NCBI RefSeq assembly: GCF_040802235.1
Contig: NC_133169.1
Span: 43,283,034 to 43,347,033 of the forward strand
From: Manis javanica
Lineage: Eukaryota > Chordata > Mammalia > Pholidota > Manidae
Reading direction: 5' to 3'
DNA length: 64,000 nt
Under the pieces are notes generated by a model. That model saw only the letters and a program-made list of their open reading frames with translations. It was not told the DNA's origin and ran no database searches. The translations under genes were made by a program, and so were the position numbers. Below, one piece after another: positions 12,701-61,395 of this stretch (its first letter is position 1; each line of letters starts with the position of its first letter).

Positions 12701-12968
12701 AAACTTCACCATTCAGCCTGGCCCAAGATTATAGGTACCTATGAAATTTGGCATATGTCCAAACCGTTTTCTCCTTTTTTAAGCAGTTCCCAGGAGATTA
12801 GGATGTGCAAAAGCCTGTCAGTGCTCAGAAGCAGCATAAATACCTATACATCCATTCAGGTTCCAGAAGGTGTGGTAGTGGCCTGCTCCATGGGCTCCCT
12901 GATGCAGGCTGATTAGAACTCTGATGGTGGACAGCCACTGGGAAATTCAAGATGTTAGGGTCCACTCT
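12700..12968 (+). mobile_element. Left part of a MaLR-type internal region (ERV target)
   Basis: This 270-base stretch is non-L1 and moderately GC-rich, and it is collinear with the sequence that resumes at 20,999. Its character matches the degenerate units at 21,000-22,960 that I assign, by eye, to MLT/MST/THE1-type internal sequence. The last six bases (12963-12968, CACTCT) are the target-site duplication of the provirus. Confidence 0.4.
12963..12968. repeat. Target-site duplication, left copy (CACTCT)
   Basis: CACTCT immediately precedes the TG of the 5' LTR and is repeated exactly at 20993-20998 after the CA of the 3' LTR. A 6-bp duplication is usual for class II retroviral integrases. 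Intact, matching copies show that the two LTRs belong to the same insertion and have not recombined with another locus. Confidence 0.93.
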
Positions 12969-13302
12969 TGTTGGCAGCCGCACTCAGAAAATAGCGCCCA
13001 ATGCAGGGGAGCCGGAAGGCCCCGAACTTCCTAATGACAAATCATCCCACACCACTAAACTACATGCTAATTGCGCCTTGGCATAAGGACCAATGAGACC
13101 CACCAAATTGCTATGCTAATAAGGCATATGGAGCCGCACCAACCAGGTCAGAGCATGAGAACTATATAAGCAAGCCTCTCCTTCCCCTCTGGGTCCTGCC
13201 CAACTCATTTGTTTCACAAAGAGCTGAAGAATAAAGCTTTCTGCAGAAGAATCCTGCTGTTGTTGCATGCTGTTCTTGCCGGCGAGGACGGGGCACGCGA
13301 CA
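12969..13302 (+). repeat. 5' LTR of the provirus
   Basis: 334 bp, starting TGTTGGCAGCCGC and ending CACGCGACA. It contains a CCAAT box (13090-13094), a TATA box (tatataa, 13163-13169) and an AATAAA polyadenylation signal (13230-13235), so the U3-R-U5 order is readable. The transcription start is expected about 25-30 bases after the TATA box. It differs from the 3' LTR at six single positions, three of which are CpG/TpG or CpG/CpA pairs, as expected of methylated-CpG decay. The promoter motifs are unmutated between the two copies. Confidence 0.96.
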
Positions 13303-13304
13303 AG

Positions 13305-13322
13305 TGGTGCCGAAACCCGGGA
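13305..13322 (+). other. Primer binding site, tRNA-Phe
   Basis: TGGTGCCGAAACCCGGGA lies two bases after the 5' LTR. It is the exact complement of the last 18 bases of mammalian tRNA-Phe including CCA. Most betaretroviruses use a lysine tRNA; phenylalanine is the primer of rodent IAP elements and, among gamma-type ERVs, of HERV-F. The exact match indicates that reverse-transcription priming was functional at insertion. Confidence 0.95.
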
Positions 13323-13399
13323 ACCAGAACATCACTGGCACAGGGAGGACCCTTCAGACATCTGGAGAGGATTCAGAACTGCAGGTCAGAAGAAAATCC

Positions 13400-13412
13400 G
13401 GAGGGGTAAGTT
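13400..13412 (+). promoter_or_regulatory. Major splice donor of the provirus
   Basis: GAGGG|GTAAGTT with the cut after 13405 matches the mammalian donor consensus and sits in the untranslated leader between primer site and gag, the normal place for a retroviral major donor. It pairs logically with the acceptor at 18475 to make a subgenomic env mRNA. Confidence 0.75.
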
Positions 13413-13472
13413 CCGAGAGGCCCCTGCTTTTTAGGATGATGGTTGATGGTTCTCTGTAAATAAGGAGGCACC

Positions 13473-15228
13473 ATGGGGAATGCACCATCATTAGTCACGG
13501 CGCTGCAGACAGCTCTCAAAGAGCGAAACTTGAAGGTCTCCAGCAAAGTCTTAGGATCTTTTGTGAAGGAGATAGACCGTGTGGCCCCCTGGTTCATTTG
13601 TTCAGGGTCCCTCTCAATCCCGAGCTGGGACAAACTGGGGAAAGATCTTGATAGAGAGGAGGAAGAAGGCAGCCTGAGGGGAGGCACCAGGCCCATCTGG
13701 AAACTGATTAGAGCTTGTCTGCAAAATGAGAGATGTGAAAAGGTAATAAAAGAAGGTCAGAGAGCATTGACAGATATCCAAGAGAGCATGTCAGAAACGG
13801 AATGGGAAACAGAGAGCGCGCGCGGCCGAAAAAAGGCCACAAAAACGAAAGTAAAGAAACCCCAGAGTGAGGGAGAAAGCCCGCCTAGGGCAAAAGCGAA
13901 AGAGCCCCGAGAAGCGAGTGACGATCGCCTCGGAGAAAATAGTAAATACCCCTGGAAAGAGTTGAGGGACCTCCAACTCTCCAATAGGGAATCTGAGGAG
14001 GAATTAACGTCCGCAGAGGAAGGGGAAGAAAATAAAACCGCAGAGTGCAAAAGTAAGGGAACCAGCAAAGTTGAAAAGCGGACCAAGGAAAAAATGAAAG
14101 TAGGGTGTCCCCCGACGCCCGTTGCCCCGCCACCTTACGTGAGTGGCACACTCTCCTTTTGCCACCCAGATACTCTTCAGGCAATTAGACAAATGTTTCC
14201 TGTATTTGAGGATAATGGCGTACGCTCTCACCAGCCCGAGCCATAAAGAAGTTAAGGAGTTAGCAGAATCCGTTCGGGCTTATGGAGTCAGTGCTAACTA
14301 TACCATAGCACAAATTGAAAGACTAACAGAGACAGCCATGACACCCGCAGACTGGCAATATGTAACTAAGGCATGCCTTTCTAGTATGGGGCAATACATA
14401 GAATGGAAGGCATTGTGGCATGATATCAGTATGACCCAGGCACGCGCAAACGCGGCCGAAGGACAGCCTGCGTGGTCATATGATATGCTGACGGGCCAAG
14501 GACAGTGGGTAGCCAACCAGACCGCCTTCCCCTTACAGGTATACGAACAAATAAACATGTGCGCCGCCAAGGCATGGAAAGCCCTCACCAACAAAGGAGA
14601 AGTATCAGGCAATTTGACAAAAATTATTCAGGGGCCGAGCGAGCCATTTTCTGACTTTGTCGCTCGTATGATGGAGGCCGCAGGCAGAATATTTGGAGAT
14701 CAGGAACAAGCAATGCTCCTAGTGGAGCAATTAGTATTTGAACAATGTACCAAGGAATGCAGACAGGCGATAACACCCTGGAAACAAAAAGGGATACACG
14801 CCTGGTTGAAAGCCTGTAGAGAAATAGGAGGGCCACTCACCAATGCGGGCCTAGCCGCGGCCATATTACAGAGCCACAAACAAGCCAGGATCACTAACAG
14901 AAGTATCAAATGCTTTCAATGCGGGAAATTAGGACATATAAAGAGAGAGTGTAGGAGCCCAGCTTCAGAACAAACAACCCAAAAGACCCCTGGGTTATGC
15001 CCTAAGTGTAAGAAAGGCAGGCATTGGGCCAATGAGTGCCGGTCTATTAAAGATATAGAAGGGAAACCCTTAGAACTGCCAAAAAACGCCCAGAGGGGCC
15101 CCCGTCACCAGGGCCCGCAAATATATGGGGCAACCAGCACGCAAGTGTCATTCAGGAACAACCAGGCCCCCCAAGGAGAGCCACTTCAGGTTCCGCGGGA
15201 TTGGACATCCGTGCCACCACCAGAATAG
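13473..15228 (+). pseudogene. gag: gag polyprotein, one frameshift
   Basis: Gag makes the particle core. The first frame (13473-14246) starts in a good Kozak context (accATGg) with M-G-N, a myristoylation signal. Residues 1 to about 95 are a betaretroviral p10-type matrix domain. A highly charged Lys/Glu linker follows, then a P-P-P-Y late motif at about residue 219, which in retroviruses recruits Nedd4-type ligases for budding. Capsid starts in this frame, which hits a stop at 14244-14246. Capsid continues one frame over (open 14143-15228), so an indel lies within roughly 14,205-14,245. The second frame holds the major homology region (from 14629, Q-G...E...R) and two C-X2-C-X4-H-X4-C zinc knuckles (14911-14952, 14998-15039). 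No programmed signal is seen at the break, so I take it as a mutation. Confidence 0.93.
15081..15116 (+). promoter_or_regulatory. gag-pro -1 ribosomal frameshift signal
   Basis: A AAA AAC at 15081-15087 is in exactly the phase required to move ribosomes from the gag frame into the pro frame. Eight bases later, GGGCCC (15096-15101) can pair with GGGCCC (15111-15116) across a 9-base loop, giving the downstream structure such sites need. A AAA AAC is the classical heptamer of MMTV gag-pro. Whether the structure is a simple hairpin or a pseudoknot cannot be decided by eye. Confidence 0.85.
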
Positions 15229-16001
15229 TGTTGACTCCACAGATGGGAGTTCAGCCTATCCTTTCAGACTTTAAAGGCCCCCTACCACCAAATACTGTTG
15301 GGTTGCTCTTAGGGTGCTCTTCTGCTGCCTTGAAAGGCCTGACAGTCCATCCCGGAGTTATAGATCAAGATTATGAAGGACAGGTAAAAATCATGTGTTC
15401 GGCTCCCAGAGGAATCTATCCTATATCTCCGGGAGACCGCATAGCCCAGCTCTTAGTTTTACCTAGTCTCCACGCCAATTATCCTGCTACCAACACGGAG
15501 AGGGGAGAAAGGAGCTTCGGCTCCTCTGACTGGGATTCAGCCTTCATAGTATTAGATTTAGCAGACAGACCAAAATTAACTCTTCAAATAGAGGGAAAGA
15601 GCTTTGAGGGAATCCTAGACACTGGAGCAGATAAAAGTATTATCTCTGCAACCTGGTGGCCCTCCAAGTGACCTGTGACCCAATCCTCACATTCATTACA
15701 AGGTTTAGGATATGAGTCAAGCCCTTCAATTAGTGCCAAACCATTGAAATGGCGAGCCCCTGAAGGACAAGAGGGTACAGTCACCCCTTATGTACTCCCT
15801 CTACCAGTCAATTTATGGGGGAGGGATGTCATGAGAGACTTAGGCCTCAAACTCATTAATGAATACTCCACCCCCGCCCAAGGCATGATGATGGACATGG
15901 GATACATCCCTGGCAAGGGGCTGGGGAAACACCAACAGGGACGCATAGAGCCCATCCTGCCCAAAGTAAAGAATGACCGTCACGGCCTGGGTTTTTCATA
16001 G
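15087..16001 (+). pseudogene. pro: pro: dUTPase-protease, one in-frame stop
   Basis: Translated by -1 frameshift from gag, so the ATG at 15201 is not a needed start. dUTPase (15189 to about 15,500) removes dUTP. Its motif 1 is S-A-G-L-D-I, motif 3 is G-V-I-D-Q-D-Y-E-G (15354-15380) and motif 4 includes G-D-R-I-A-Q-L. Motif 2 reads G-C-S-S (15312-15323) where the family normally has Arg after Gly, possibly a CpG-decay change that would weaken phosphate binding. The aspartic protease active site L-D-T-G-A-D is at 15615-15632. A TGA at 15669-15671 interrupts the protease about 13 codons after the active site; the same frame then stays open to 16001. The tail (about 15,880-15,960) is a glycine-rich G-patch, typical of class II protease C-termini. 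Confidence 0.92.
15989..15995 (+). promoter_or_regulatory. Candidate pro-pol -1 frameshift heptamer (GGGTTTT)
   Basis: G GGT TTT fits X XXY YYZ and lies in pro phase six codon positions or fewer before the pro stop at 15999-16001. A -1 slip here enters the pol frame, open from 15995 onward. No other heptamer with the right phase stands out in the short pro/pol overlap. The downstream stimulatory structure was not resolved by eye. Confidence 0.65.
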
Positions 16002-18628
16002 GGGTCATTGAAGATGCCATGCCCATACCTTGGCTCACAGAGGAGGCCGTATGGGTTCCTCAGTGGCCCCTATCCTCTGAAAAATTAGAAGCAGCTCATT
16101 GCTTAGTGCAAGAGCAGCTCCAAGTGGGACACCTAGAACCCTCTGTGTCCCCATGGAACACACCCATATTTGTAATCAGGAAAAAGTCAGGATCATGGAG
16201 GTTGCTTCATGATCTGAGAGCAGTAAATGCTCAAATGAAAATGCTTGGACCCGTACAACGGGGACTGCCACTCCTCTCCGCCTTACCCAGAGAATGGAAG
16301 GTGCTCATAATAGATATTAAGGATTGTTTCTTTTCCATACCCCTAAGCTCCAAGGACAGAGAAAGATTTTCTTTCACTCTGCCAGCTATTAACCATGAAC
16401 AACCCGATGCCAGATTTCAGTGGAAGGTCCTCCCTCAAGGAATGGCAAATAGCCCCACCATATGTCAACTGTACGTTCAGCGAGCGCTAGACCCAATTCG
16501 TAAGACCTATCCCACGCTAAAGATCATCCATTACATGGATGACATCCTTCTTTGCTCCCCACAACCAGCGGAAATAGAAGAAGCATATATAGATCTCACT
16601 AGATCCCTAGAAAATTGGAGACTGAATATAGCAAGCGAGAAGGTCCAAAAATCTAGTGTTAGCAAATTCCTAGGAGCAACCATTTACACAGATGTAATTT
16701 GCCCCCAAAAGCTTGAGATAAGACATAATCAATTGCAAAATTTGAATGACTTCCAAAAACTCCTAGGGGATATTAATTGGTTGCGCCCATACTTAAAGAT
16801 ACCCACCACTGAGTTGACACCACTGTTTAAAATCCTAGAAGGAGACCCACAACTAACGTCACCGCGCTCCCTCACACCTGAGGCATTACAAGCCATTCGC
16901 AAAGTAGAACAGGCTTTGATGACAGCACAATTAAATAGAGTGCAATCGAATGAACCCTTTGAGTTGTGTGTCCTTCCCACCCCAGAGCTGCCAACAGCAG
17001 TCTTATGGCAGCACGGCCCACTGATCTGGATCCATCCCCAAGCCTCTCAGGCTAGAACAATAGAGTATTATCCGGCAGCCGTGGCCAAACTTGCTTTGAG
17101 AGGAGTAAAAACCTCCATGACTCATTTCGGAGAGGCTCCAGCTAAAATTATAACCCCTTACAGCGTAGAACAGATACAAGTATTATGTGCTATGAACGAT
17201 GATTGGGCCATACTTGCTTATAGTTTCTCAGGAACCTTTGATAATCATTTCCCTAAACATCCCCTCATCAACTTTGCCAAAAATCATCTCCTAGTATTCC
17301 CTCGGGTCACTAGCCTAACCCTGCTGCCTCATGGAAAAACAGTTTACACGGACGGGTCTAAGACAGGCACAGGTGCCTATGTCCATGATGGCAAAGTTGT
17401 GACAAAAGGCTACACGCCTGACACTCCACAAATAGTGGAATGTCGCATAGTCTTAGAGGTCCTACAAATCTTTCCTGAACCTTTAAATATTGTGTCTGAC
17501 TCCTGTTATGTAGTTAATGCAGTCAAATCTCTAGAAGTGGCCGGGCTAATCAAAGCGTCCAGCCCAGTAGCCACTTTGTTCAAACAGATACAATCAGCAC
17601 TACTTCATAGACAATCTCCTTTGTATATAACTCATATCAGAGCACATTCAGGCCTTCCCGGGCCTATGACTCAAGGCAACCACTTGGCAGACCTCGCAAC
17701 CAGAAGCATAGCTTTTCCCCTGCTAGACCCTATCACCACAGCTTCAAAATTCCATACACAATTTCATGTCACTGCCGAAACACTGCGCAAGCGGTTTAGC
17801 ATAACCAGGGCCGAAGCTAGGAACATTGTCCTTAGCTGCCAACATTGCTGCAGCTTCCTTCCCACACCTCATGTTGGGATCAACCCCAGAGGTATTAGGC
17901 CTTTACAAGTTTGGCAAATGGATGTGACGCATATTTCACCTTTTGGGAAACTTAAATACGTACACGTATCCGTGGATACTTGTTCAGGAGTCATCTTTGC
18001 CTCCCCATTGTCAGGAGAGAAAGCTTCCCATGTCATCCAGCACTGCCTTGAAGCTTGGAGCGCATGGGGGTTACCACAGATTCTGAAAACAGACAATGGC
18101 CCAGCCTATACCTCTACAAAATTTGCTCAATTTTCTCATCACATGGGGATAAAACATATCACTGGCCTTCCCTACAACCCACAGGGTCAAGGGATTGTGG
18201 AACGCGCGAACCGCACGCTCAAATCCTATTTACTTAAACAAAAAGGGGGAATTGAAGATATACCCCCCACACCAAAAACTGCCATAGCCCTAGCACTTTT
18301 CACTATAAATTTTTTTAATCTGGATGCTCAAGGCTATACAGCAGCGGATCGCCATAATCAGTGGCCAAAAGACCCACAAGAACTAGTAAAATGGAAGGAC
18401 GTGTTATCTAACCAATGGAAGGGCCTGGATCCAATCATAATCAGATCCAGGGGAGCTGTGTGTGTTTTCCCCCAGGGTGAAGAAAATACCTTCTGGATCC
18501 CGGAGCGCCTAACGAGGAAAGTCCTAAACAAAGGAGATGACTTCGCTGTACCTCCTGACCCTGCTCCTGACACTGGAGACCCCGACTCAGGGAGTATTGA
18601 GATGGGGAATCCTGTCTGCCTTTCCTAA
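15995..18628 (+). CDS. pol: Pol: reverse transcriptase-RNase H-integrase, intact frame
   Basis: Open for more than 870 codons. Numbering from the internal ATG at 16019: RT about residues 1-280 with active site Y-M-D-D at 172-175; connection domain; RNase H with T-D-G-S (D445) and D-S-C-Y (D494); integrase with a zinc-binding H...C-X2-C region ending about residue 615, then catalytic D635 (D-V-T-H), D692 (T-D-N-G) and E728 (V-E-R), spaced D,D-35-E. The C-terminal integrase region (about residues 790-840) is present. All catalytic residues I can identify are conserved and no stop or frameshift occurs. The real start is the -1 frameshift from pro, not an ATG. The 3' end overlaps env by 92 bases. 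Intact pol in an ERV with broken gag/pro suggests youth rather than host use. Whether it is transcribed is unknown. Confidence 0.96.
18460..18476 (+). promoter_or_regulatory. Splice acceptor for env mRNA
   Basis: A pyrimidine-rich tract ending in TTTTCCCCCAG (AG at 18474-18475) precedes the env start. The first ATG downstream is the env ATG at 18537, 61 bases on, so a transcript spliced from 13405 to 18476 would translate env directly. This is the expected arrangement for a simple retrovirus. Confidence 0.65.
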
Positions 18629-20312
18629 GCCTATGCCTGTCCGTTTCAATGCAGCCGTTTTTCCCCGCTTTTTCACCACCAACTCTAGTATGAACTTGCC
18701 CTACCTAGAAAAGGACACCCTAACAGCCCCGTTGGGAGAAAACCGATCCTTCGTAACTAATGGGTCATTATGCTTCACCACTCAGAATCTAGCTGGCTGT
18801 ATCTCCCTGAAATGGAGGAAATACGGATGGTTCAGTGACATAATTCTAGAGGCCAGTGGCCTCCCCGTTATGTCAGCTAAATTTGAAGGGCCTAATAAGG
18901 AAGGGAGCCCGCCCTATAAGAACATGACTATCCACCAGATGGTTCTCTGGATCAATGGCACATTTGTACACTCTCCCAGGAACAATTCCACCGACAGGCC
19001 TCGTCAACCCAAATATGCCTCCCATTGTGTGGGCGACTATGAGGGAGAGCTGTGGCCCTGGACTGATTGTCAGTCAACTGTAGTAACGTGGGCAACTGAG
19101 AGGCAGGAGTTTACCATCTCCCCAGATATGGAGGGACGGCCAGCCAATGAGGCTTGGTGGCCAGTAAAGGTGCTCGAAGGCGAGTTTCGTCAGCAGCTGA
19201 GCATGAACCCCTTCCATAAATGGATGCTGTGTGGAGTCAATGGCTCGTGTACCGACCTCTCCCCCTTTTCCGCCCTCCAGGGTGGGGGAATCGGTGTAAA
19301 AAATATCACCTTTTGGTGCGAGAACAACCACACGCGCGCACACTGGAACATGACCATGACCCATAACAACGAGAACTACACGTGTTCAGCAAAATCAGGT
19401 CCAGAGTCACCTAATTCCCTTTTCCCACCTTCTCCAGTATGCGTATACCCCCCATTTCTGTTTATCTTATCCAATAGTAGCTTTGACTCCTGCTCCAATG
19501 AAACCTGCTTTCTGTCTCAGTGTTGGGATGCGCGTAACTTTACCAATGCTTTGATAGTCCGCATCCCCCGTTGGGTCCCTGTTCCCGTAGACGCCCCTAA
19601 CACCATGACTCTGTTTCGAGAAAGGCGCGATTTTGGCGTTACAGCCGCCATAGTGCTCCTGATCTCCGCGACCGCGGTCGCAGCCACCGCCGCTGGTATA
19701 GCTTTAGACACCTCCATCAAATCGGCTACAGAGCTCAATAACCTTGTAGCCTCAGTAGCTTCTGCCCTGGACCAACAGTCCACACTTGATGGCAAACTGA
19801 TAGGAGGAATAATGATCCTCAATCAACGCATAGATCTCATGGAGGAACAAATGGAGGTGCTCTAGCAAATGGCCCAATTGGGATGTGAGCGGAAATATCG
19901 TGCCCTCTGCATCACTAGCATTCAATATGAAAATTTTACACGGGCAGCTAATCTGTCACGAGACCTGTCCCAGTATCTTTCAGGAAACTGGTCCCAAGAC
20001 TTCGATGGGACACTAGAAGAGCTGCGGCGAGAAATTATCCACATCAACTCCACCCGTCTAGATATCTCCGTAGCGGAAGGACTCTCTTCCTGGTTCCTCA
20101 GAGCTCTCTCCCACGTCAAGGAGTGGGCGGGCATGGCTGGGATGGGCGTGTTCCTGCTTGGAGGTCTCATGCTCTTACTCTGGTTGTTATGCAGACTCCG
20201 CAACCAACATAAGCAGGACAAGGTGATCCTTGCTCAAGCCCTAATGGCGATAGACATTGGCGCCTCTCCCCAAGTGTGGCTCAACATGCTTAAGAAGGAA
20301 GCTCGGCTTTAG
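18537..20312 (+). pseudogene. env: env glycoprotein, one in-frame stop in TM
   Basis: Env mediates receptor binding and fusion. The frame spans 592 codons but carries TAG at 19863-19865 (codon 443). Residues 1-19 form a signal peptide (leucine-rich core). SU has about fourteen N-X-S/T sequons and paired cysteines. A furin-type R-E-R-R site is at residues 361-364 (19617-19628), followed by an Ala/Val-rich fusion peptide (about 365-392) and the first heptad region. After the stop, the same frame continues through the rest of the TM ectodomain, a membrane anchor (about 20,130-20,196) and a short cytoplasmic tail. I see no CX6CC, consistent with class II rather than gamma-type TM. The truncated 442-residue product would lack the anchor. 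The reading frame is otherwise undamaged. Confidence 0.93.
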
Positions 20313-20644
20313 CTTGAGGTAGCTCTTGCACCCTGAGCCCATGTGGCACTGCACCAGGCCCGAGTACCTCATTGCTTAATCACAGCTTTCTCTAAGAAGC
20401 TCATGGTGCAAGAGGGTTGAGAAAAAAGGTCCAAACCCTTTGTACCAAGCGGTCCCAACGCCAGCCAGAGGATGCGAGGCAAAGCACTGCAAGAGGTCTT
20501 GGACCCCTCTGAGAGGCATGCCTGACTGCATAGGGGTAGATGCCCAGAACCCCTCTCCAAAAAGGGGGCATCAGGAAGTATGATGGAGGTCAGGCCTCTG
20601 TCTCCGCCTCTGCTGGCAAGTTCCGCCTTGAGCTTCTGTTAGAC
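20313..20644 (+). other. Proviral 3' untranslated region with possible RNA hairpin
   Basis: No open frame of note lies between env and the polypurine tract. TCTTGCACC (20324-20332) and GGTGCAAGA (20405-20413) are exact reverse complements, enclosing a further weaker stem near 20,380-20,400. A folded element here could serve unspliced-RNA export, as constitutive transport elements do in some simple class II viruses, but this is only a position-based suggestion. Confidence 0.4.
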
Positions 20645-20658
20645 AAAAAAGGGGGAGA
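20645..20658 (+). other. Polypurine tract
   Basis: AAAAAAGGGGGAGA directly abuts the TG of the 3' LTR. This uninterrupted purine run is the plus-strand primer for reverse transcription and fixes the LTR boundary. Confidence 0.95.
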
Positions 20659-20992
20659 TGTTGGCAGCCGCGCTCAGAAAATAGCGCCCAATGCAGGGCA
20701 GCCGGAAGGCCCCGAACTTCCTAATGACAAATCATCCCACACCACTAAACTACATGCTAATTGTGCCTTGGCATAAGGACCAATGAGACCCACCAAATTG
20801 TTATGCTAATAAGGCATATGGAGCCGCACCAACCAGGTCAGAGCATTAGAACTATATAAGCAAGCCTCTCCTTCCCCTCTGGGTCCTGCCCAACTCATTT
20901 GTTTCACAAAGAGCTGAAGAATAAAGCTTTCTGCAGAAGAATCCTGCTGTTGTTGCGTGCTGTTCTTGCCGGCGAGGACGGGGCACGCGACA
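20659..20992 (+). repeat. 3' LTR of the provirus
   Basis: 334 bp, same length as the 5' LTR with no indels. TATA box 20853-20859, AATAAA 20920-20925. The six differences from the 5' LTR are at LTR positions in the first 40 bases (two), near 20,764, near 20,802, near 20,847 and near 20,957. CA at 20991-20992 is followed by the duplicated target CACTCT. Confidence 0.96.
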
Positions 20993-20998
20993 CACTCT
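20993..20998. repeat. Target-site duplication, right copy (CACTCT)
   Basis: Identical to 12963-12968. Removing the provirus and one copy joins the left and right halves of the older repeat without loss. Confidence 0.93.
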
Positions 20999-26415: not shown

Positions 26416-27405
26416 TTATAAATGTGTTCTAAAATGAGTATGGACTTTTTCTGTTTTACTCTTACACTCAGTGTAAACATGCTCAGTGACATAAGTCCCT
26501 GCAGAGGCCCCTTTCACCTCTGTGTTCCTCAAGCTGTAGGTCGTGGGGTTTAGCACTGGGGTGATAACCCCGTAGAGCATGGCAATGAGTCTGTCCCTGT
26601 CTGGGGAGTGGTGACTTGAAGACGAATGTAGGTGAAGATGGCTGTGCCATAGAACAAACAGACCACCAGGAGGCGGGAGGCACATGTGGAGAAGGCTTTG
26701 TGCTTCCCTTCCACCGACTGGATCTTTAGGATGGTGGATATGACGGAAACGTAAGAGATGAAGGCACCAATTCCCGAGACACCTCCTGCCACTAAAACAA
26801 GCATTTCTGCTATGTAGGTGGATGAGCAGGAGAGGGCCACCAGTGGGGGGTCGTCACAGTAGTACTGGTTAACACTATTGGACTTGCAGAAAGACAGGCA
26901 GAAGGTGGACACTGTGTGGAGGAAGGAATGGAGAAACCCTGCTGCCAGCTGGGCACAGCGAACCTTTGTCATGATGAGGGTGTAATGGAGGGGGAAGCAG
27001 ATGGCCACGTACCGGTCATAAGCCATGGCAGCGAGAAGGATGACCTCAGTCCCCGCCAGGGTCACCAGGAAATAAAGCTGCAAAGCACATCCCAGGAAGG
27101 AAATCTGTGATTCCCAGTCAGGAGGTTGTCCAGCATCTTGGGGATAGTAGCTGATGGGCAGAACATGTCTAAGAGGGACAGACTAGCCAGAAAGTAATAC
27201 ACGGTGTGTGCAGCTTCTTCTCCATCCAGATGGCCAAGAGAATGGCCCCGTTTCCCACCAAGGTGACCTGGTAGGTGATGGCAAAGACCACAAAGAGAGG
27301 ATAGTGCACCTCGGGGAGGTCAGAGAGCCTCGTGAGGATAAAGTGAGTCACGGGGGTGAGATTGTAGCCATCCACCCCTCTCTCCACATGATACTCAGCT
27401 CCCAT
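26416..27405 (-). pseudogene. Olfactory receptor pseudogene (class II type)
   Basis: Seven-transmembrane odorant receptor, single-exon as usual, broken by three frameshifts. N-terminus 27405-27205: a start Met, an N-L-T glycosylation site and TM1 with the G-N motif. The frame shifts near 27,200, after which TM2 (L-A-S-L-S-L-L-D) and the P-K-M-L-D block read in another frame. A second shift occurs near 27,105. The central piece (27083 to about 26,630) holds TM3 with M-A-Y-D-R-Y-V-A-I, loop cysteines and TM6 with K-A-F-S-T-C-A-S. A third shift near 26,625 restores P-V-L-N-P in TM7 and the S-L-R-N tail (the normal end is around 26,490). Tetrapod class II wording; I cannot name the subfamily. No other receptor is within the window. 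Confidence 0.92.
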
Positions 27406-28330: not shown

Positions 28331-28619
28331 ATTTAAGCAAGAATCACTGATGTTACTTGGATTATTTTATCTTTTATATTTGCAAACCACCCCGGGTCTG
28401 TATCATGCTTTGGAGGAAAAGACAATGCATTTTTGTGATATTAAAGTCATAATATTTAGGAAAGAAAATTACAATACAGACCAGAAAGTGTTTGGATATA
28501 ATTCAATTAGCAGATGTTTAGTGAGCAAATGAAAATGACTGAACAAAAACATCCACCTTCTTAAATATCAAGGTTCTGTAAAGCTGCACAATTTCAGTTC
28601 TCTACATCTTTATACATTT

Positions 28620-31600
28620 ACTTTTTTGGTTTCATTAATCTACAATTACATGAAGGACATTATGCTTACTAGGCTCCCCCCTTCAGCAAGTTCCCCCCCA
28701 CATACCCCTTCACAGTCACTGTCCATCAGTGTAGTCAGATGCCACAGAGTCACTATTTGCCTTCTCTGTACTTCACTGTTCTCCCTGTGATCCCCCACAC
28801 CATGAGTACTAAACATAATACCCCTCAAACCCCTTCTCCCTCCCTCCCCACCCATCCTACCACACCCCTCCCCTTTGGTAACCACTAGTCCCTTCTTGGA
28901 GTCTCTGAGACTGCTGCTGTTTTGTTCCTTCAGTTTTGTTTCATTGTTATACTCCACAAATGAGGGAAATCACTTGGCACTTGTCTTTCTCTGCCTGGCT
29001 TATTCCACTGAGAATATTGTCCTCAAGCTCCATCCATGTTGTTGCAAATGGTAGGATTTGTTTCTTTCTTATGGCTGAATAGTATTCCATTGTATGTATG
29101 TACCACATCTTCTTTATTTATTCATCTACTGATGAACACAAGTTGCTTCCATATCTTGGCTACTGTAAAAAGTGCTGCAATAAACATAGGGGTGCATATG
29201 TCTTTTTGAATCTGAGAAGTTGTATTCTTTGGGTTAATTCCAAGGAGTGGGATTTCAGGGTCAAATGGTATTTCTATTTTTAGTTTTTTTAGGAACCTCC
29301 ATATTGCTTTCCAAAATGATTGAATTAGTTGACATTCCCACCAGCTGTGTAGGAGGGCTCCCCTTTCTTCGAATCCTTGCCAGCATTTGTTGTTCTTAGT
29401 ATTTTTGATTCTGGCCATCCTTACAGGTGTGAGATGATATCTCATTGGAGCTTTAATTTGCATTTCCCTGATGATTAGTGATGTGGAGCATCTTTTCATG
29501 TGCTTTTGGCCATCTGAATTTCTTCTTTGGAAGAAATGTCTCTTCATATCTCTGCCCATTTTTTAATTGGGTTATTTGCTTTGCTTTTCAGGTGTTGAGG
29601 TGTGTAAGTTCTTTATATATTTTGGATATTAACCCCTTGTCGGATATGTCATTTACAAGTATATTCTCCCTTACTGTAGTATGTCTTTTTGTCTGTTGAT
29701 GGTGTCCTTTGCCGTACAGAAGCTTTTTAGTTTGATGTATTCCCATAAGTTCATTTTTTGCTTTTGTTTCCCTTGCTCAAGGAGATGCATTCAGGAAGAA
29801 GTTGCTCATGATTATATTCAGGAGATTTTTGCCTGTTTTCTTCTAAGAGTTTTATGGTTTCATGACTTAAATTCAGGTTTTTGATCCATTTTGAGTTTAC
29901 TTTGTGTATGATGTTAAGCAATGAATCAGTTTCATTCTCTTGCATGTAGCTGTCCAGTTTTGCCAACACCAGCTGTTGAAGAGGCTGTCATCTCCCCATT
30001 GTATATCCATGGTTCCTTTATCCTATATTAATTGAGCACATATGCTTGGGTTAATATCTGGACTCTATTCTGTTCCTCTGGTCTATGGGTCTGTTCTTTT
30101 GCCAATACCAAATTGTCTTGATTACTGTGGCTTTGTAGTAGAGCTTGAAGTCAGGGGGCATACTTTACCCTACTTTATTCTTCCTTCTCATGATTGCTTT
30201 GTCTATTCGGGGTCTTTTGTGGTTGCATATGAATTTTAGAACTATTTGCTTTAGTTCGTTGAAGAATGCTTTTGGTATTTTGATAGGAATTGCACTGAAT
30301 CTGTAGATTGCTTTGGGCAGGATGACAACTTTGACAGTATTAATTCTTCCTATCTATGAGCACAGGATGTGAACCATTTATTGGTATCTTCTTTAATTTC
30401 TCTCATGAGTGTCTTACAGTTTTCAGGGTATAGGTCTTTCACTTCCTTTGTTAAGTTTATTCCTCTGTATTTTATTCTTTTTGATGCAATTGTGAATGGA
30501 ATTGTTTTCCTGATACCGCTTTCTGCTAGTTCATTATTAGTATATGGGAGTGCAACAGATTTCTATGTGTTAATTTTGTATCCTGCAACATTGCTGAATT
30601 CAGATATTTGATTTAGTGGTTTTGGGGTAGATTCTTTAGGGTTTTTTGTGTGTATATGATATATTCTTGAAAATGTTTCATGTTCAGTTGAGAAGAATGT
30701 GTGCCCTGTTGCTTTTGTGTGGAGTGTTCTGTAGATGTCTGTTAGGTCCATCTGTTGTAATGTGTTGTTCAGTGCCTCTGTCTCCTTACTTATTTTCTGT
30801 CTGGTTGGTCTGTCCTTTGGAGAGAGTGATGTGTTGAAGTCTCCTAAAATGAATGCATCACAATCTATTTCCCTCTTTAATTATGTTAGTACTTGCTTCA
30901 CATTTTTGAGTGCTTCTTTGTTAAGTACACAGATATTTATAATGGTTATATCCTCTTGTTGGACTGACCCCTTTATCATTATCTAATGTTTTCTTTGTCT
31001 TGTCACTTTGTTTCTGAAGTCTATTTTGTTGAATACAAGTACTGCAATGCCTGCTTTTTTCTCCATTAGTTGCATGAAATATCTTTTTCCATAAGTTCAG
31101 TTTTAGTCTGTTTATGTCTTTGGGTTTGAACTGAGTCTCTTGTAGGCATTATATAGGTGGGTCTTATTTTTTGTCCCTTCAGTGACTCTATGTATTTTGA
31201 TTGATTCCTTCAGACCATTTACATTTAGGGTGATTATCAATATGTATGTACTTATTGCCATTGCAGGCTTTAGATTTGCGGTTACCAAAGGTTCAAGGGT
31301 AACTTTCTTTCTATCTCATAGTCTAACTTAACTCATGTAATGCTATTACAAACACAATCTAAACGTTATTTTTTTCCTCTCCTCTTATTCCTCCTCCAGA
31401 TTTAGTATATTAGGTGTCATAATCTGTACTCTTTGTCTATTCCTTGTCTGACTTTGGGGTAGTTGATTTAATTTTGCATTTGTTTAGTAATTAATTGTTC
31501 CACTTTCTTTACTATGGTTTTGTTTGTTCCTGTAACAGCTATTTAGCCTTAGGAACAATGTGGAGACAGTTTGTGGAAGAAGGTAAATTCTCTCAATTTT

Positions 31601-33365
31601 TGCTTATGTGGAAATTGTTTAATCCCTTCTTCAAATTTAAATGATAATCGTTCTGAGTAGAGTATTGTTGGTTCAAGACCCTTCTATTTCATTACATTAA
31701 ATATATCCTGCCACTCCCTTCTGGCCTGTAACATTTTTGTTGAGAAGTCTGATGATAACCTGATGGGTTTACCTTTGTATGTGATCCTTTTTCTCTCTCT
31801 GGCTGCTTTTAATATTCTGTCCCCATTCTTGATCTTTGCCATTTCAAATATTGTATGTCCTGGTGTTATCTTCCTTCGGTCCTTTTTGTTGGGAGATCTG
31901 TGCTCTTCCATGGCCTCTGTGACTTTCCTTCCCCAGATTTGGGACGTTTTCAATGATTATTTCATCAGAGACCCTCTTTATCCCTTTTCCTCTCTCTTCT
32001 GCTGGTATCTTTATAATGTGAATATTGTTCCTTTTGGATTGGTCACATGGCTCTCTTAATATTTTTTCATTTCTAGAGATCAGTTTTTCTCTCTCTGCCT
32101 CAGCTTCTCTGTGTTCCTGTTCTGTAATTTGTATTCCATTGAGTCTCCTGTCATTCTTCTAATCTGCTTTTATATCCTTCCATTGTATGGTTCAGTTCAG
32201 CTATTGTATTTTTCAAAGTCTCTATGTCTGTCTTGAACTGTCCCTGAGATCTTGAATATGTTTTTGTAGCTCTGTGAGCATGTTTATGATTTTTACTTTG
32301 AAATCTTTATTGAGAAGATTGGTTATCTTGGTTTCACTCTCCTCTCTGGTGTTTTAGGGATTTTGGATTGAGCCAGGTTCTTTTGACATTTCTTCCCTAC
32401 TTGAATCCTATGAAATGATAACTTTGTGTAATTCACTCCCCTCTAGTGGCCAGGATCTTTACTCTCTGGGGTGTTCACACTGGTTGCAGGTATGTGGCAC
32501 TGGTGCCTGCCAGGATCACGGAGCTCTTTCCTGATTCATGGCCACAGTGTCTGCCTGAACTGCTAGGGCCAGTTAGTCAAGCATGCAGGGAGCAGCCTCT
32601 GCATTACACCCCTTTAGCTACTGTACTGGGTGCTGTCCTCCTGCTGACGTGGTGCCATGGAGGGGGTAGCAGCTTTGTGAGCAGGTGCTGGCCAGGAGGG
32701 AGTGGCTGGCTGCTTATGGTGGTGGGAGTGTCTCAAGGCTGCATTGACAGCCAGGGGGATGGAGCTCCTGAAACTCCTGAAAGTTCCCATTTTGACAGGC
32801 TGAGTGTGCTGGGACAATTTTGTCTACTTATCCTTCCTCCTTAGCAGCAAGCTCTGTGTAATCCTTGCCCCTTTAGCAGCCCTCTCACTGTTGGAAAGTC
32901 TTTCAATGCATCTGCCTTTGTCTTGCCCTGTAGTGGCTGCTTTTGGGTACTTGTTCTATATAAGTGGCTGGAATCTCAGTCTGCCCAAGTGTTCCACCTG
33001 TCCCTGCTTTCCAACCCCTTTAATTTCCAGAGCACCATGCAATGTGGTTTCGTGGTCCTAGAGTAGATCTTCAGGGCTGGGTATTTAGCAGTCCTGGGCT
33101 TCTACTTCTTCCCTCCTCCATTACTGTTCCTCCTGCCTGTGTGCTGGGTTTGGGGAGAGGGCTTGGGTTCTGCCCAGTTGTGGCTTTACTACTTTACCCT
33201 TTTCCTTGAGGTCTTCTATTTTCCCCAGATGCAATGTCTGTTGCTGTTTCCTTCTGGTCACTCTTTCAAGATTAGTTGTATTTGCTGTGTTTTCATGCTA
33301 TATGTGGTTTTGGAGATTATTTCTACTTCACTTCTCATGCTACCATCTTTCCTGCTCTCCTGAAG
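28620..33365 (-). mobile_element. Young-family L1, minus strand, internally deleted ORF2
   Basis: Nearly full-length layout on the minus strand. The 3' UTR is at 28,620-29,100, the ORF2 C-terminus at 29,100-30,350 and the end of RT at 30,350-30,650. The endonuclease region is at 30,660-31,500. ORF1 has its C-terminal RNA-binding part at 31684-31953, including G-K-P-I-R-L and A-R-R-E-W, and its N-terminal part to about 32,400. The 5' UTR runs to about 33,365. Compared with the plus-strand copy at 55-61 kb, about 1.5 kb is missing: the frame 30563-30751 joins endonuclease residues (T-F-S-R-I) directly to a segment lying after the RT active site. The catalytic RT core is therefore gone. Several frameshifts and stops occur elsewhere. 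Confidence 0.85.
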
Positions 33366-34080: not shown

Positions 34081-34188
34081 TTAGTGAGAAATAATATATT
34101 TAGGAAGGAAGTTTATTGATACTGGAGAGTCATAACTTCTAGATTTTTTCAATGGACAGATTTTGGAAACCATCATCAGTCACTCCAT

Positions 34189-34271
34189 ACATCCATCTAT
34201 CTATCCTTCCTTCCATCCATCCATCCATCCATCCATCCATCCATCCATCCACCCACCCATCCATCTATCCA
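34189..34271. repeat. (ATCC)n microsatellite
   Basis: About 17-20 CATC/ATCC tetranucleotide units with a few CTATC and CACC variants at both ends. Likely length-polymorphic. Confidence 0.95.
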
Positions 34272-48012: not shown

Positions 48013-48090
48013 AACTAGCCTGTAAAACTGTTTTCTTCAGTGATTGTTTTAAACTAGCCTGTAAAGCTGTTTTCGTCAGTGATTGTTTTA
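48013..48090. repeat. Two-copy tandem duplication, period 39
   Basis: The unit beginning AACTAGCCTGTAAA spans 48013-48051 and repeats at 48052-48090 with two substitutions and no gap. A local duplication in the presumed intron. Confidence 0.9.
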
Positions 48091-55074: not shown

Positions 55075-58000
55075 TTTATTAAGAATAATGTCTTATGGGG
55101 ATTAAACAAGACAGCTGCATGAGAAGTGAGGTACAAACCTCCTCCCAAAGCCACGTATAACACGAAAATACAGCAAATATAACTAATCCTGAAAGAGCGA
55201 TCAGAAAGAAGAATGCAACAGACAGCTTACATCTGGGGAAAAGAGAAGACCTCATGGAGAGGGTAAAGAAACCTGTGATCCTGTGTGACACAAGCCCTCT
55301 CCCACCGAAGCTCATGAGTGGGAGGAAGAGAAATGGAGGCGGGAGAGAGTAGAAGCCAAGGACTGCTAAATACCCACCCCTGGAGATCTGCTCTGGGAGC
55401 AGGAACCCACATTACATGATTCTCTGGAGATTATAGGGGTTGGAAAGCAAAGACAGGCAGAATACTCAGAAAGACTAGATTTTAGCTACTTTTGGAAAAC
55501 AGGCCCCCACAACTGGCTACGCTGGGACAAAAGAAAGGCAGGCACTTTGAAAGACTTCCTAACAGTGAGAGGGCTGCTAAAGAGACAAGGATTATACAGA
55601 GCTTGCTGCCAGGAGAAAAGACAGGTGCACAAAATCATCCTGGCACACTCAGCAGAGCAGATTGGGAACTTTGAGAAGCTCCATGCACTTCATCCCCCCA
55701 GCTGGCAATGCAGTGTCAAGGCCTACCCAGTGCAATATGCAGCCTGTGGCTCCTTCTTCCCAGCCAGCATCAGTTCACAAACCTCCTGACCCCAACATCA
55801 TCCCAGGCCAGCCAGAGGCAGACCCACCTACAGCACCAACAAGGGTGTAGTGTAGAGAATCCATCTTGCACCCTTGCCCACTGGCCCTGGCATTTGAGGC
55901 AGGCACAGTGGCCAGGAAGATCGGAAAGTGCTCTTTCTTCCCAGAAGGCACTGGCCCTGCGCACCTGTGACTCCCGCCTTTGCTCCAGGGGCTGGGAAGC
56001 TCTAGAGATTAGAGCTTCTGGGCACTAGAGGACACTGCCTACATAAAGTTATTATTCAGTAGGATTCATTAGAGATATGAAATGGCAAGAAACCTGGTAC
56101 AAACCAAAATCCCTCAAACAGCAGAAAGAAGGCTAAGTGAAACTGAATCACCAATCTTTCTGATTAAGATTTCAAAATAATAATCATAAACATGCTCATA
56201 GAGCTACAGAAAAATTTTCAAGACCTCAGGGATGTTTTCAACAAAGACACACAAACTTTGAAAAATATAGCATCTAAATGAAACATACAATGGAGGGATA
56301 TAAATAGCAGATAAGATGAGGTAAAGGAGATGATTAATGAAATAGAAATTAGGGAACAGAAATACAAAGAACCTGAGGTGGAGAGACAAAAAAGGATCTC
56401 TAAGAATGAAAGGGTATTAAAAGAAATGTGTAACCAATCCAAAAGGAGCAATGTTCATATTACAGGGGTACCAGAAGGAGAGAAAGAAAAGTAAAAATGT
56501 ACAGAAAGTGTCTTTGAGGAAATATTTGCTGAAAACACCCCAATATAGGGAAGGAAATGTTCTCTCAGGCCATGGAGGTGCACATATCTGCCAACACACA
56601 AGGAACCCAAGGAAGATAGCACAAAGACACATAATAATAAAAATGGCAAAGATCAAGGACAAGGACAGAGTATTCAGAGCATCCAGAGAGAGAAAAAAGA
56701 CTAGATACAAAGGAAAACCCATCAGGCTGTCATCAGACTTGTCAGCCAAAACCTTAAAGGCCAGAAGGGAGTAGCATGATACATTTAATGCAATGAAACA
56801 AAAGGGCCTCAGATGAAGAATACTCTACCTGAAAGACTTTCATTTAAATTTTATGGAAGTATTAAACTATTTCCAGAAATGCAGAAGTTGAGGGAATTTA
56901 CCTCCCAGAAACCAAACCATCTCTCTGGTGCATTTCAGAAGGACTGCTCTAGATGGGAGTTCTCCAAAGGCTAAATAGCTGTCACCACAGAAAATAAAAC
57001 CACAGTAAAGAAAGTAGACCAATTAATTGCTAAGCAAATGGGAAATTAAATCAACTACCCTCAAAATCAGTGAAGGGATACAAAAAGAGGATAGAATATG
57101 ACACCTAGTATATAAAGAGAGGAGGAGGAAGAAAATGGAGGAAAAAATTCTTTAAATTGTGTTTGAAATAGCATGATAAGCAAGTTAAATTAGACTGTTA
57201 GATACTAAAGAAGATGCCCTTGGACCTTTGGTAACCACAAATCTAAAGCCTGCAATGGCAAAGTACATATCTATCGATAATAACCCTAAATGTAAGGACT
57301 GAATGCACCAAACAAAAGACACAGTGTTACAGAAGGGATAAAAAAAACAAGACCCATACATATGTTGCCCACAAGAGTCTCACTTCAAACCCAAAGACCT
57401 ACACAGATTAAAAATCAAGGGGTGGAAAAAGATATCCCATGGAGCTAAATAGGGAGAAAAAAGCAGGAGTTGCAGTACTTGTATCAGATAAAAAAAGACT
57501 TCAAAACAAAGGAAGTCAGAGGAGCAAACAAAAGAAGGACATTACATAATGATGAAGGGGTCAGTCCAACAAGAGGATGTAACCATTAGAAATGTCCGTG
57601 CACCAAACATAGAGCACCCAAAAATGTGAAAAAATGCTCACAGAATTGAAAGGGGAAATAGAATGCAATGCATTCATTTTAGGGGACTTGAACTCACCAC
57701 TCAATACAAGGACAGATCAACCAGACAGAAAATAAGTAAGGAGACAGAGGCACTGAACAACACTTTAGAACAGATGGACCTGAGAGACGTCTATAGAACA
57801 TGCCACCAGAAAGCAACAGGATACACATTCTTCTCAAGTGCACATGGAACATTTTCAAGAATAGATCATATACTAGGCCACAAAAAGAACCTTGGTAAAT
57901 TTAAAAAGATTGAAATTGTACCAAACAGCTCTTCAGACCCCAAAGGTATGAAATTAAAAATAAATCCTGCAAAGAAAACAAAAAATCGCACAAACATATG

Positions 58001-61000
58001 GAGGCTTCACAACATGCCCCTAAATAACCAATGGATCAATAACCAAATAAAAACAGAGATCAAGCAGTATATGGAGGCAATGAAAACAATAATTCAGAAC
58101 CCCAAAATCTGTGGAATGCAGGGAAAGCCACGCTAAGAGGGAAGTATATTGCAATACAGGACCACCTCAGCTTACCTCAGGAGAGAAGAACAATCCCATA
58201 TGAACAGTCCAAACTTGCAGTTAACGAAACTAGAAAAAGAAGAACAAAGGAGAGACAACTTCAGTAGAAGGAGGGGCATAATAAAGATTAAAGCATGAAT
58301 AAATAAAATCGAGAAGAATAAAACAATACAAAGAATCAATGAAAGCAATAGCCTGTTGTTTGAGAAAATAAATCAAATAGATAAACCCCAAGTCAGACTT
58401 ATCCTTAAGAAAAGAGTCTACACACATAAATAGAATCAAAAATGAGAAAGGAAAATTCCCGAAGGACACCAAAGGAATACAAAGAATTATCAGATTGCAA
58501 TGCAAAATAACATGCTAAAAAACTGCATAATCTAGAAGAAATGGACAACACCTTCAAAGGCTGAACCACAAGGAAACAAAATCTGAACAGACCAATTACC
58601 AGCAACGAGATTGAATTGGTAATCAAAAAAACTACCTAAGAAGAAAATCCCTGGACCAGATGGCTTCACCGCTGAATTTTAATCAAACATTTACTGAGGA
58701 CATAATAACCATCCTCCTTAAAGTTTTCCAAAAAGTAGAAGAGGAGGGAATACTTCCAAACTAATTCTATGAGTCCAGCATCACTCCAATACCAAAACCA
58801 GGCAAAGACACCACAAAAAAGGAAAATTACAGATCCATATCCCTGATGAATCTAAGTGCAAAAGTACTCAACAAAATATTAGCAAGCCGATTTAAAAAAT
58901 ACATCAAAAACATCATCCACCATGACCAAGTAGGATATATTCCGGGGATACAAGGATGGTAGAATATTTGAAAATCCATCATCAGCCACCACATCAACAA
59001 AAAGAAGGACAAAAACCACATGATCATCTCCATAGATGCCTAAAAAGCATTCGACAAAATTCAACATCCATTCGTGATAAAAACTCTCAACAAAATGGGT
59101 ATAGAGGGCAAGTGCCTCAACATAATAAAGGCCATATATGACAACCCACAGCCAACATCATACTTAACAGCAAGAAGCTGAAAGCCTTTTTGTTAAGTGC
59201 AGGAACAGGACAAGGACGTCCCCTCTCTGCACTTTTATTCAACCAGTTCTGGAGGTCCTCTCTACAGCAATTAAACAACACAAAAATAAAGGGCATACAG
59301 ATTGGTAAGGAAGAAGTTAAACTGTCACTGTTTGCAGATGACCTGATACTGTACCTAAAAAACTCTAAGGAATCTACACCAAAAATACTAGATCTAATAT
59401 CTGAATTTAGCAAAGTTGCAGGATAGAAAACTAATACACAGAAATCTGTTGCATTCCTGTACTCTAACCATGAACTATCAGTAAGAGATATCAGAAAAAC
59501 AATTCCATTCACAATTGCATCAAAAAGAGTAAAATACCTAGGAATAAACCTAACCAAGGAAGTGAAAAACCTGTACTCTGGAAACTACAAGACACTCATG
59601 AGAGAAATTAAAGAAGATACCAATAAATGGAAACACATCCTGTGCTCATGGATAGGAAGAATTAATATTGTCAAAATGGCCATCCTGCCTAAAGCAATCT
59701 ACAGATTCAATGCAATCCCTATCAAAATACCAACAGCATTCTTCAACGAACTAGAGCAAATAGTTCTAAAGTTCATATGTAACCACAAAAGACCCCGAAT
59801 AGCCAAAGCAATCCTGATAAGGAAGACTAAAGCTGGGAGAATTACACTCCCTGACTTCAAGCTCTATCCCAAAGCCACAGTAATCAAGACAACTTGGTAC
59901 TGGCACAAGAACAGACACACAGACCAATGGAACAGACTATACAGCCTAGATATAAACCCAACCATATATGGTCATTTAATATACGATAAAGGAGCAATGG
60001 ACATACAATGGGGAAATAACAGCCTCTTCAACAAATGGTGTTGGCAAAACTGGACAGCTACATGCAAGAGAATGAAACTGGATTATTGTTTAACTGCATA
60101 CACAAAAGTAAATTTGAAATGGATCAGCAACTTGAATGTAAGCCATGAAACCATAAAACTCTTAGAAGGCAACATAAGCAAACATCTCCTGAATATAAAT
60201 ATGAGCAACTTCTTTTTGAACCCATCTCCTCAAGAAAGGGAAACAAAAGCAAAAATGAACTTGTGGGACTATATCAAACTAAAAAGTTTCTGTAAGGCCA
60301 AAGTCATTATCAACAGAACCAAAGGCATTGTGCTGTATGGGAGAATATGTTTTTGAACATCATATCTGACAAGGGGTTAACATCCAAAATATATAGGAAA
60401 CTCACGTCTCAACACCCAAAAACAAATAACCCTATGAAAAAATGGGCAGAGGATATGAACATGCAATTCTCCAAAGAAGAAGTTCAGAGGGCCAACAGGT
60501 ACTTGAAAAGATTCTCCACATCACTAATCATCAGTGAAATGCAAATTAAAACCACAATGAGATATCACCTCACACCACTAAGGATCACCACCATCCAAAA
60601 GACAAACAACAACCAATGTTAGCGAGGATGTGGAGAAAGGGGAACCCTCCTACACTGCTGGTGGAAATGTAAGCTAGTTCAATTATTGTGGAAAGCAATA
60701 TGGAGGTTCCTCAAAAAACTGAAAATAGAAATACCATTTGATCCTGGAATCCCATTCCTAGGTATTTACCCAAAGAATACAAGTTCTCAGATTCAAAAGG
60801 ACATATGCACTGTATGTTTATTGGAGCACTATTTACAATAGCCAAGAAATGGAAGCAACGTAAGTGTCCATCAGTAGATGAATGGATAAAGAAGAGGTGG
60901 TACATATACACAATGGAATACTATTTGGCCATAAGAATAAAACAAATCCTACCATTTGCCAGAACATGAATGGAGCTGGAGGATATTATGCTCAGTGAAA

Positions 61001-61395
61001 TAAGCCAGGTGGAGAAAGACAAGTGCCAAATGATTTCCCTCATTTGTGGAGTATTACAAAGAAGCAAAACTGAATGAACAAAAAAGCAGCAGTCTCGGAC
61101 CTCCAAGAAAGGACTAGCAGTTACCAAAGGGGAGGGATGTGGGAGGGCAGGTCAGGAGGGACACAGAAGGGGATTGAGGGGGAAATGTTTAGTACACATT
61201 GTGTGTGGGGTCACAGGGAAGGCAGTGTAGCACAGAGAAGGCGAATAGCAAATCTGTGGCATCTTGCTACACTGATGGACAGTGACTGCAATGGGGTATG
61301 GGTGAGGACTTGATGAATGGATGAATGTAGTAACCACATTGTTTTCTCATGTGAAATATTCATAAGAGTGCATATCAATAATACCTTAATGAGAA
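55075..61395 (+). mobile_element. Near full-length L1, plus strand
   Basis: About 6.3 kb. The 5' UTR (about 55,075-56,050) is similar on the opposite strand to 32,400-33,365. The ORF1 region is about 56,100-56,900; the frame 56451-56774 holds the RNA-binding part with G-K-P-I-R-L-S. ORF2 endonuclease is 57,250-58,140 (frame 57663-58136 with S-R-I-D-H). RT is 58,600-59,430, with an intact L-F-A-D-D motif in frame 59190-59426. The C-terminal region is 59562-60356 and beyond, and the 3' UTR is 61,050-61,395. Several stops and frameshifts split both ORFs, so it cannot retrotranspose. It ends without a clear A-tail, abutting another L1. Confidence 0.88.

What the first reader, a model, noticed from the sequence alone, without database searches (positions are those of the whole stretch)
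12969..20992. Recently inserted IAP/IAPE-like provirus with all genes and cis signals present
Seen directly: both LTRs, matched 6-bp target duplication, primer site, polypurine tract, splice sites, gag-pro-pol-env, and only 6 LTR differences in 334 bases, three at CpG-type sites. At ordinary mammalian neutral rates that implies a few million years, so the family was probably active recently in this host and may include intact copies elsewhere. An env-bearing IAP-like group outside rodents would be of interest.
Basis: partly seen in the sequence, partly recalled or inferred. Interest (0 to 1): 0.75.

Follow-up and report, generated by a model that had tools for sequence, protein, structure and literature searches.

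The report
Defective envelope-bearing IAP-like pangolin provirus
This is a fairly young but broken retrovirus copy, most likely in a pangolin genome, that belongs to the same group as the mouse's intracisternal A-particle elements and still carries an envelope gene.

Summary
The provirus is real: two 334-bp LTRs with 6 differences (three at CpG sites), a 6-bp target duplication, primer site, polypurine tract, gag, dUTPase-protease, pol and env. It is defective: gag changes frame, protease and env each hold a stop; only pol is open. Its env is 97% identical to Manis javanica proteins, so the host is most likely a pangolin (no host evidence independent of the provirus). Pol belongs with IAPs: integrase 69% to mouse IAP, 48% to MMTV, 30% to RSV; RT 61% to mouse IAP, 46% to HERV-K. 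Gag starts MGN and env is beta-type, which resembles infectious IAPE rather than env-less IAP. LTR age is about 4.1 My (1.5-8.9), with a caveat. IAP-like genes in Malayan pangolin are already in print (PMC10776870), and I infer that 'ERV-Alpha-Mpen' of Chinese pangolin (PMC12584738) is this group misfiled. Added here: pangolin env proteins form one clade of several lineages whose surface part is 50-65% identical while the transmembrane part is 76-93%, and gag nests among mainly rodent sequences (RT undecided). New member of a known kind, modest interest.

The parts
12963..12968 (+). 5' copy of the 6-bp target site duplication CACTCT
12969..13302 (+). 5' LTR, 334 bp; TATA-like site at 13163, AATAAA at 13230
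13305..13322 (+). primer binding site, tRNA-Phe type (the tRNA letters are recalled)
   Evidence: IAP and IAPE use tRNA-Phe by PMC7472051
13406..13411 (+). splice-donor-like GTAAGT
   Evidence: consensus match only
13473..14246 (+). gag, first piece: starts MGNAPS, matrix domain (Gag_p10); frame is lost near its end
14143..15228 (+). gag, second piece in another frame: capsid and two zinc knuckles
15081..15087 (+). slippery heptamer AAAAAAC in the gag frame (gag-pro, -1)
   Evidence: use inferred; no unusual fold after it
15051..15671 (+). dUTPase and first part of the protease domain; ends in a stop inside the protease
15672..16001 (+). rest of the protease domain and G-patch, same frame
15989..15995 (+). 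slippery heptamer GGGTTTT in the pro frame (pro-pol, -1), followed by a strong RNA stem
15977..18628 (+). pol: RT, thumb, RNase H, integrase; open over 883 codons
18537..19865 (+). env from its first ATG: SU, furin-like site (cut about 19628), start of TM; ends in a stop in the TM ectodomain
19866..20312 (+). rest of env TM, with CX7C motif
20645..20658 (+). polypurine tract
20659..20992 (+). 3' LTR, 334 bp
20993..20998 (+). 3' copy of the target site duplication

Best explanation
A defective provirus of an envelope-bearing IAP lineage (IAPE type) in a pangolin, most likely Manis javanica, inserted roughly 4 million years ago by LTR divergence. Inferred cycle of its parent: LTR-driven RNA (motifs seen); two -1 frameshifts give Gag, Gag-Pro and Gag-Pro-Pol (heptamers seen in register, use inferred); Gag is myristoylated and assembles at the plasma membrane (inferred from the MGN start); a spliced RNA gives a beta-type SU/TM spike (cleavage site and CX7C seen, splicing inferred); tRNA-Phe primes reverse transcription (site seen); new germline copies arise by re-infection rather than purely inside the cell (inferred from the retained env and matrix type). 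This copy itself can no longer do so.
For: LTRs, target duplication, primer site, polypurine tract. Domains. Integrase 69% and RT 61% to mouse IAP against 48% MMTV, 30% RSV, 46% HERV-K. Integrase tree: 26-row clade 100/98 with mouse IAP; RT trees place it beside the mouse and hamster IAP clade. Env 97% to two M. javanica proteins and inside a 14-row clade (100/100) that holds all 7 rows named Manis. MGN start in the window and in 4 of its 5 closest gag relatives, the fifth beginning inside gag. GP41 family match for the 97% env relative P0121.
Against: Host evidence comes only from the provirus; the genome could not be searched. The window's own env pieces gave no significant Pfam match, and the HERV-K TM structure match was weak (E 0.017). 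The forks that put its RT next to mouse and hamster IAP are not starred (92; 94/90). MG starts also occur in several rodent and other rows, so they do not single out pangolins. No mouse IAPE env was identified by name among the hits, so direct identity to IAPE env was not measured.
Confidence: 0.82

Rival explanations
1. A betaretrovirus of the MMTV/MPMV/HERV-K kind rather than an IAP.
For: dUTPase, G-patch, two -1 frameshifts and a beta-type TM are betaretroviral.
Against: Integrase 48% to MMTV but 69% to mouse IAP; RT 46% to HERV-K but 61% to mouse IAP. A proteins with dUTPase or G-patch joined to IAP-like pol also occur among the pol hits (P0023, P0047), so these domains do not argue against IAP.
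Confidence: 0.04
2. A mammalian alpharetrovirus, as the similar pangolin element ERV-Alpha-Mpen was classified in print.
For: PMC12584738 puts ERV-Alpha-Mpen with Alpharetrovirus in its RT tree, and that element shares dUTPase and G-patch with this one.
Against: Integrase only 30% identical to RSV, 69% to mouse IAP. IAP does not occur in the main text of that paper.
Confidence: 0.03
3. An IAPE-type provirus as above, but older than its LTRs suggest, because gene conversion or a slow pangolin rate kept the LTRs alike.
For: Three lesions in gag, pro and env. PMC12584738 reports a shared ERV-Alpha insertion in two pangolins although LTR ages are 1.41-3.47 My and the split is put at about 16.4 My.
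Against: Gag, pol and env are 98%, 99% and 97% identical to relatives, so the whole element is close to its kin.
Confidence: 0.15
4. The parent family spread mainly inside the cell like mouse IAP, and env is a passenger.
For: The closest gag capsid outside the pangolin clade is a Rattus gag with a hydrophobic, ER-type start (P0164).
Against: The window and its close relatives have an MGN start; env is open in P0121 (591 aa) and TM is conserved while SU varies.
Confidence: 0.12

Closest known systems
Mouse IAPE (IAP element with an envelope)
   Same: tRNA-Phe primer (PMC7472051), IAP-group pol, an env, called beta-type for IAPE in PMC3758190; gag type without ER leader (recalled for IAPE)
   Different: Host most likely a pangolin; no mouse IAPE env or gag was among the named hits, so direct identity was not measured
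Mouse IAP and hamster CHIAP34 (env-less IAP)
   Same: RT 61-62% and integrase 69-73% identical (the CHIAP34 integrase match covers 158 residues)
   Different: This element has env and an MGN gag start; the nearest Rattus gag has a hydrophobic start
ERV-Alpha-Mpen of Manis pentadactyla (PMC12584738)
   Same: dUTPase, G-patch, recent LTR ages (1.41-3.47 My), a Phe primer site if the paper's wording is read in order, a counterpart in M. javanica
   Different: Classed there with Alpharetrovirus; listed as an exception to having the Cys-His box and PPPY motif; sequences not compared here, so identity is an inference
IAP-like ERV genes of the Malayan pangolin (PMC10776870)
   Same: Counted as most similar to mouse and hamster IAP, 11% in the genome
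   Different: Similarity counts only in the passages seen; no provirus anatomy there

Membership tests
IAP group of class II ERVs | pol closer to IAP than to MMTV, HERV-K or RSV | tested here: met
   identities; trees. MPMV not available
IAP group of class II ERVs | tRNA-Phe primer site | tested here: met
   site at 13305-13322; match to tRNA-Phe recalled; IAP/IAPE use of tRNA-Phe from PMC7472051
IAPE | beta-type env gene present | tested here: met
   env homologs, CX7C and not CX6CC, GP41 family in the 97% relative P0121; the window's own broken pieces gave no GP41 match
IAPE | plasma-membrane gag (MG start) rather than ER leader | tested here: met
   MGNAPS at 13473; myristoylation and budding site not testable here
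IAPE | env related to mouse IAPE env | tested here: inconclusive
   clade next to rodent env rows, but no row is named as mouse IAPE
env-less IAP | env lost, ER-targeted gag | tested here: not met
Alpharetrovirus | pol closest to RSV | tested here: not met
   integrase 30% to RSV; RT of RSV not tested
MMTV/HERV-K-type betaretroviruses | pol closest to MMTV or HERV-K | tested here: not met
Recent, lineage-specific insertion | empty site in the sister species | not tested
   genome search unanswered

The most novel reading that the evidence does not exclude
Pangolins host their own radiation of IAPE retroviruses, which entered from murid rodents and kept going by repeated germline re-infection, the surface subunit diversifying in blocks on a conserved gag-TM backbone; some members may still have every gene open.
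Probability: 0.33. Interest if true: 0.6.

Novelty: new member of a known kind. Interest (0 to 1): 0.4.

Why it matters
Classical IAPs are known mainly as env-less rodent retrotransposons. An env-bearing relative with several env lineages in pangolins gives a case outside rodents for asking how IAPs moved between mammalian orders and how spread by re-infection differs from spread inside the cell. It also suggests that a published 'alpharetrovirus' of a mammal is an IAP relative, which would remove a claimed widening of the alpharetrovirus host range.

Tried and rejected
Rejected: MMTV/HERV-K-type betaretrovirus and alpharetrovirus; gamma-type env (CX7C, no CX6CC). Led nowhere: tRNA and Rfam scans of the window (no match); relatives in viral contigs by pol, env and gag (none) and in prokaryote genomes (none); unusual RNA fold after the gag-pro slip site (z -0.51); a relative of the empty site inside the window (flanks matched themselves, plus a repeat in the 3' flank). 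Undecided: whether the pangolin pol lies inside or beside the IAP rows. RT did not reject 'beside' (p-AU 0.35), gag did (1.9e-5; 1.7e-5); those groups were named after a tree had been seen, and many rows have no host name.

Change on checking: the 'older than it looks' rival went from 0.10 to 0.15, the best explanation from about 0.85 to 0.82 and the novel case from 0.35 to 0.33, because I had passed over the shared ERV-Alpha insertion reported in PMC12584738 and the MG-type gag starts in other rodent rows.

Full report
What is there. Bases 12969-20992 hold a full-length provirus: 334-bp LTRs that differ at 6 sites (4 transitions, 2 transversions; three at CpG dinucleotides), flanked by CACTCT on both sides. 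The Kimura distance 0.0182 gives 4.1 million years at 2.2e-9 per site per year, the rate used in PMC12584738; the Poisson range for 6 events is about 1.5 to 8.9 million years. Between the LTRs lie a primer site, a splice-donor-like site, gag, dUTPase-protease-G-patch, pol, env and a polypurine tract. Gag to pro and pro to pol are each -1 steps, with AAAAAAC at 15081 in the gag frame and GGGTTTT at 15989 in the pro frame (positions, register worked out from them). The 85 bases after the second heptamer fold at -39.2 kcal/mol, better than all 200 shuffles (z -3.76); the 83 bases after the first do not stand out (z -0.51, 62 of 200 shuffles as good).

What is broken. Gag loses its frame near 14.2 kb, between matrix and capsid; the protease ends in a stop within its domain, upstream of pol in the frameshift series; env ends in a stop in the TM ectodomain before CX7C. 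Pol is open over 883 codons. Uninterrupted relatives of single genes are in the database: gag P0159 (98%, 585 aa, no host name), pol P0001 (99%, 869 aa, no host name) and env P0121 (97%, 591 aa, Manis javanica). One copy with all genes open was not seen.

Host. Of 38 env proteins found, the two closest are both named Manis javanica (97%); the five named M. pentadactyla are at 51-61%. Two gag proteins named M. pentadactyla are 93% identical in the capsid part. A pangolin is therefore the likely host, probably M. javanica, but this rests on the provirus alone, and database clusters at 90% could hide copies from other species.

Group. Integrase identity: mouse IAP 69%, rabbit protein 56%, MMTV 48%, RSV 30%. 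RT: mouse IAP 61%, hamster CHIAP34 62%, HERV-K 46%. Integrase tree: 91 rows passed a length filter and were thinned to 54; the window and P0001 fall in a 26-row clade (100/98) with mouse IAP and Nannospalax. RT trees on chosen subsets (47 and 27 rows of the 120 listed plus references) place them beside the clade of mouse and hamster IAP, with support 92 and 94/90, neither starred. IAP and IAPE of the mouse use tRNA-Phe (PMC7472051, figure legend among the passages seen).

IAPE rather than IAP. The window's gag starts MGNAPS, as do P0159, P0160 and P0169 (M. pentadactyla); P0162 starts MGNVPS and P0161 begins inside gag. The closest named full gag outside the pangolin clade, Rattus P0164, has a hydrophobic start, as have P0165, P0168, P0170 and P0171 by a crude rule; but MG starts also occur in other rodent, lemur, colugo and whale rows, so the trait marks the IAPE-like type and not pangolins. 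Mouse IAPE is reported as infectious and as progenitor of IAP through loss of env and relocalisation of particles (PMC3197615, abstract and passages). The TM has CX7C, and P0121 matches GP41 above its cut-off, while the window's own broken pieces do not match it.

Env lineages. In a tree of 39 env rows (all 38 hits and the window's first env piece), 14 form one clade (100/100): the window, all 7 rows named Manis and 6 without a name; the other 11 named rows are all rodents. The clade holds four supported lineages and one single row. Among five full-length rows of the clade (P0121, P0128 and the unnamed P0123, P0124, P0131; P0127 was set aside because its last part is not env) all 10 pairs have SU identity 0.50-0.65 and TM identity 0.76-0.93. 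The 4 other pairs listed, with TM of about 0.70 or more, have SU 0.55-0.73 and TM 0.70-0.78. Within SU the change sits in blocks near residues 81-130, 181-220 and 241-280 of P0121, with conserved ends. This looks like diversification of exposed parts of one env and not a swap for an unrelated env. It fits re-infection but does not prove it: no DNA of relatives was at hand for a selection test, and the compared sets differ in depth.

Cross-order history. Gag tree: 61 of the 120 listed gag proteins plus the window. A pangolin clade of 6 (window, two named M. pentadactyla, three unnamed; 100/99) lies in a 19-row group (97/96) with a Rattus pair and a long-branched subgroup of 11 (rodents, two colugo rows, unnamed rows), inside a 26-row group whose other named rows are rodents and colugo. 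Holding the non-pangolin rows together is rejected (p-AU 1.9e-5; 1.7e-5 without the long-branched subgroup). RT does not reject it (p 0.35). Entry from rodents is thus suggested by gag only.

Literature. PMC10776870 (passages) counts IAP-like genes in the Malayan pangolin. PMC12584738 (abstract, passages, and Results, Methods and Discussion in full) describes ERV-Alpha-Mpen: up to 13 copies, dUTPase and G-patch, LTR ages 1.41-3.47 My, a shared insertion in M. javanica, RT near Alpharetrovirus; the words IAP and intracisternal are absent from its main text. I infer that it is this group. Against: it is listed among the exceptions to having the Cys-His box, and no sequence was compared. PMC3758190 (passages) says that IAPs are prevalent in various mammals. 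PMC4643047 and PMC8297934 were seen in passages; the latter names M. javanica ERVs among relatives of some cetacean ERVs. The searches for pangolin with intracisternal, 'pangolin endogenous retrovirus', Manis javanica with betaretrovirus and IAP with Pholidota listed six different papers; four were opened in the parts named, two (PMC9604959, PMC11341202) were seen as listings only. None of what I saw describes an env-bearing IAP provirus of a pangolin as such.

Noticed in passing
window 26550-27182, minus strand: Olfactory receptor fragment, 210 aa (PF13853, E 9.1e-25).
   Followed up: no
window 28600-33160 and 55290-62945: Long repeats on opposite strands, 73-89% alike, and a stretch repeated about 1.6 kb apart at 59918-62684; they look like L1 pieces (label recalled).
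   Followed up: no
window 15996-16080: Strong RNA stem just after the pro-pol slip site, better than all 200 shuffles.
   Followed up: partly
window 48013-48090 and 34184-34271: Two copies of a 39-bp unit, and a TCCA microsatellite of 22 copies.
   Followed up: no
P0088, P0140, P0161, P0163: IAP-like proteins under misleading labels: a Trypanosoma congolense protein, an anaphase-promoting complex subunit of Jaculus, and 'igE-binding protein-like' for gag in many mammals.
   Followed up: no
P0160 and P0123; P0161 and P0127: Gag and env hits whose longest contigs have the same length (7671; 66628983), perhaps the same elements: gag 87-93% but env only 60-66% identical to the window's.
   Followed up: partly
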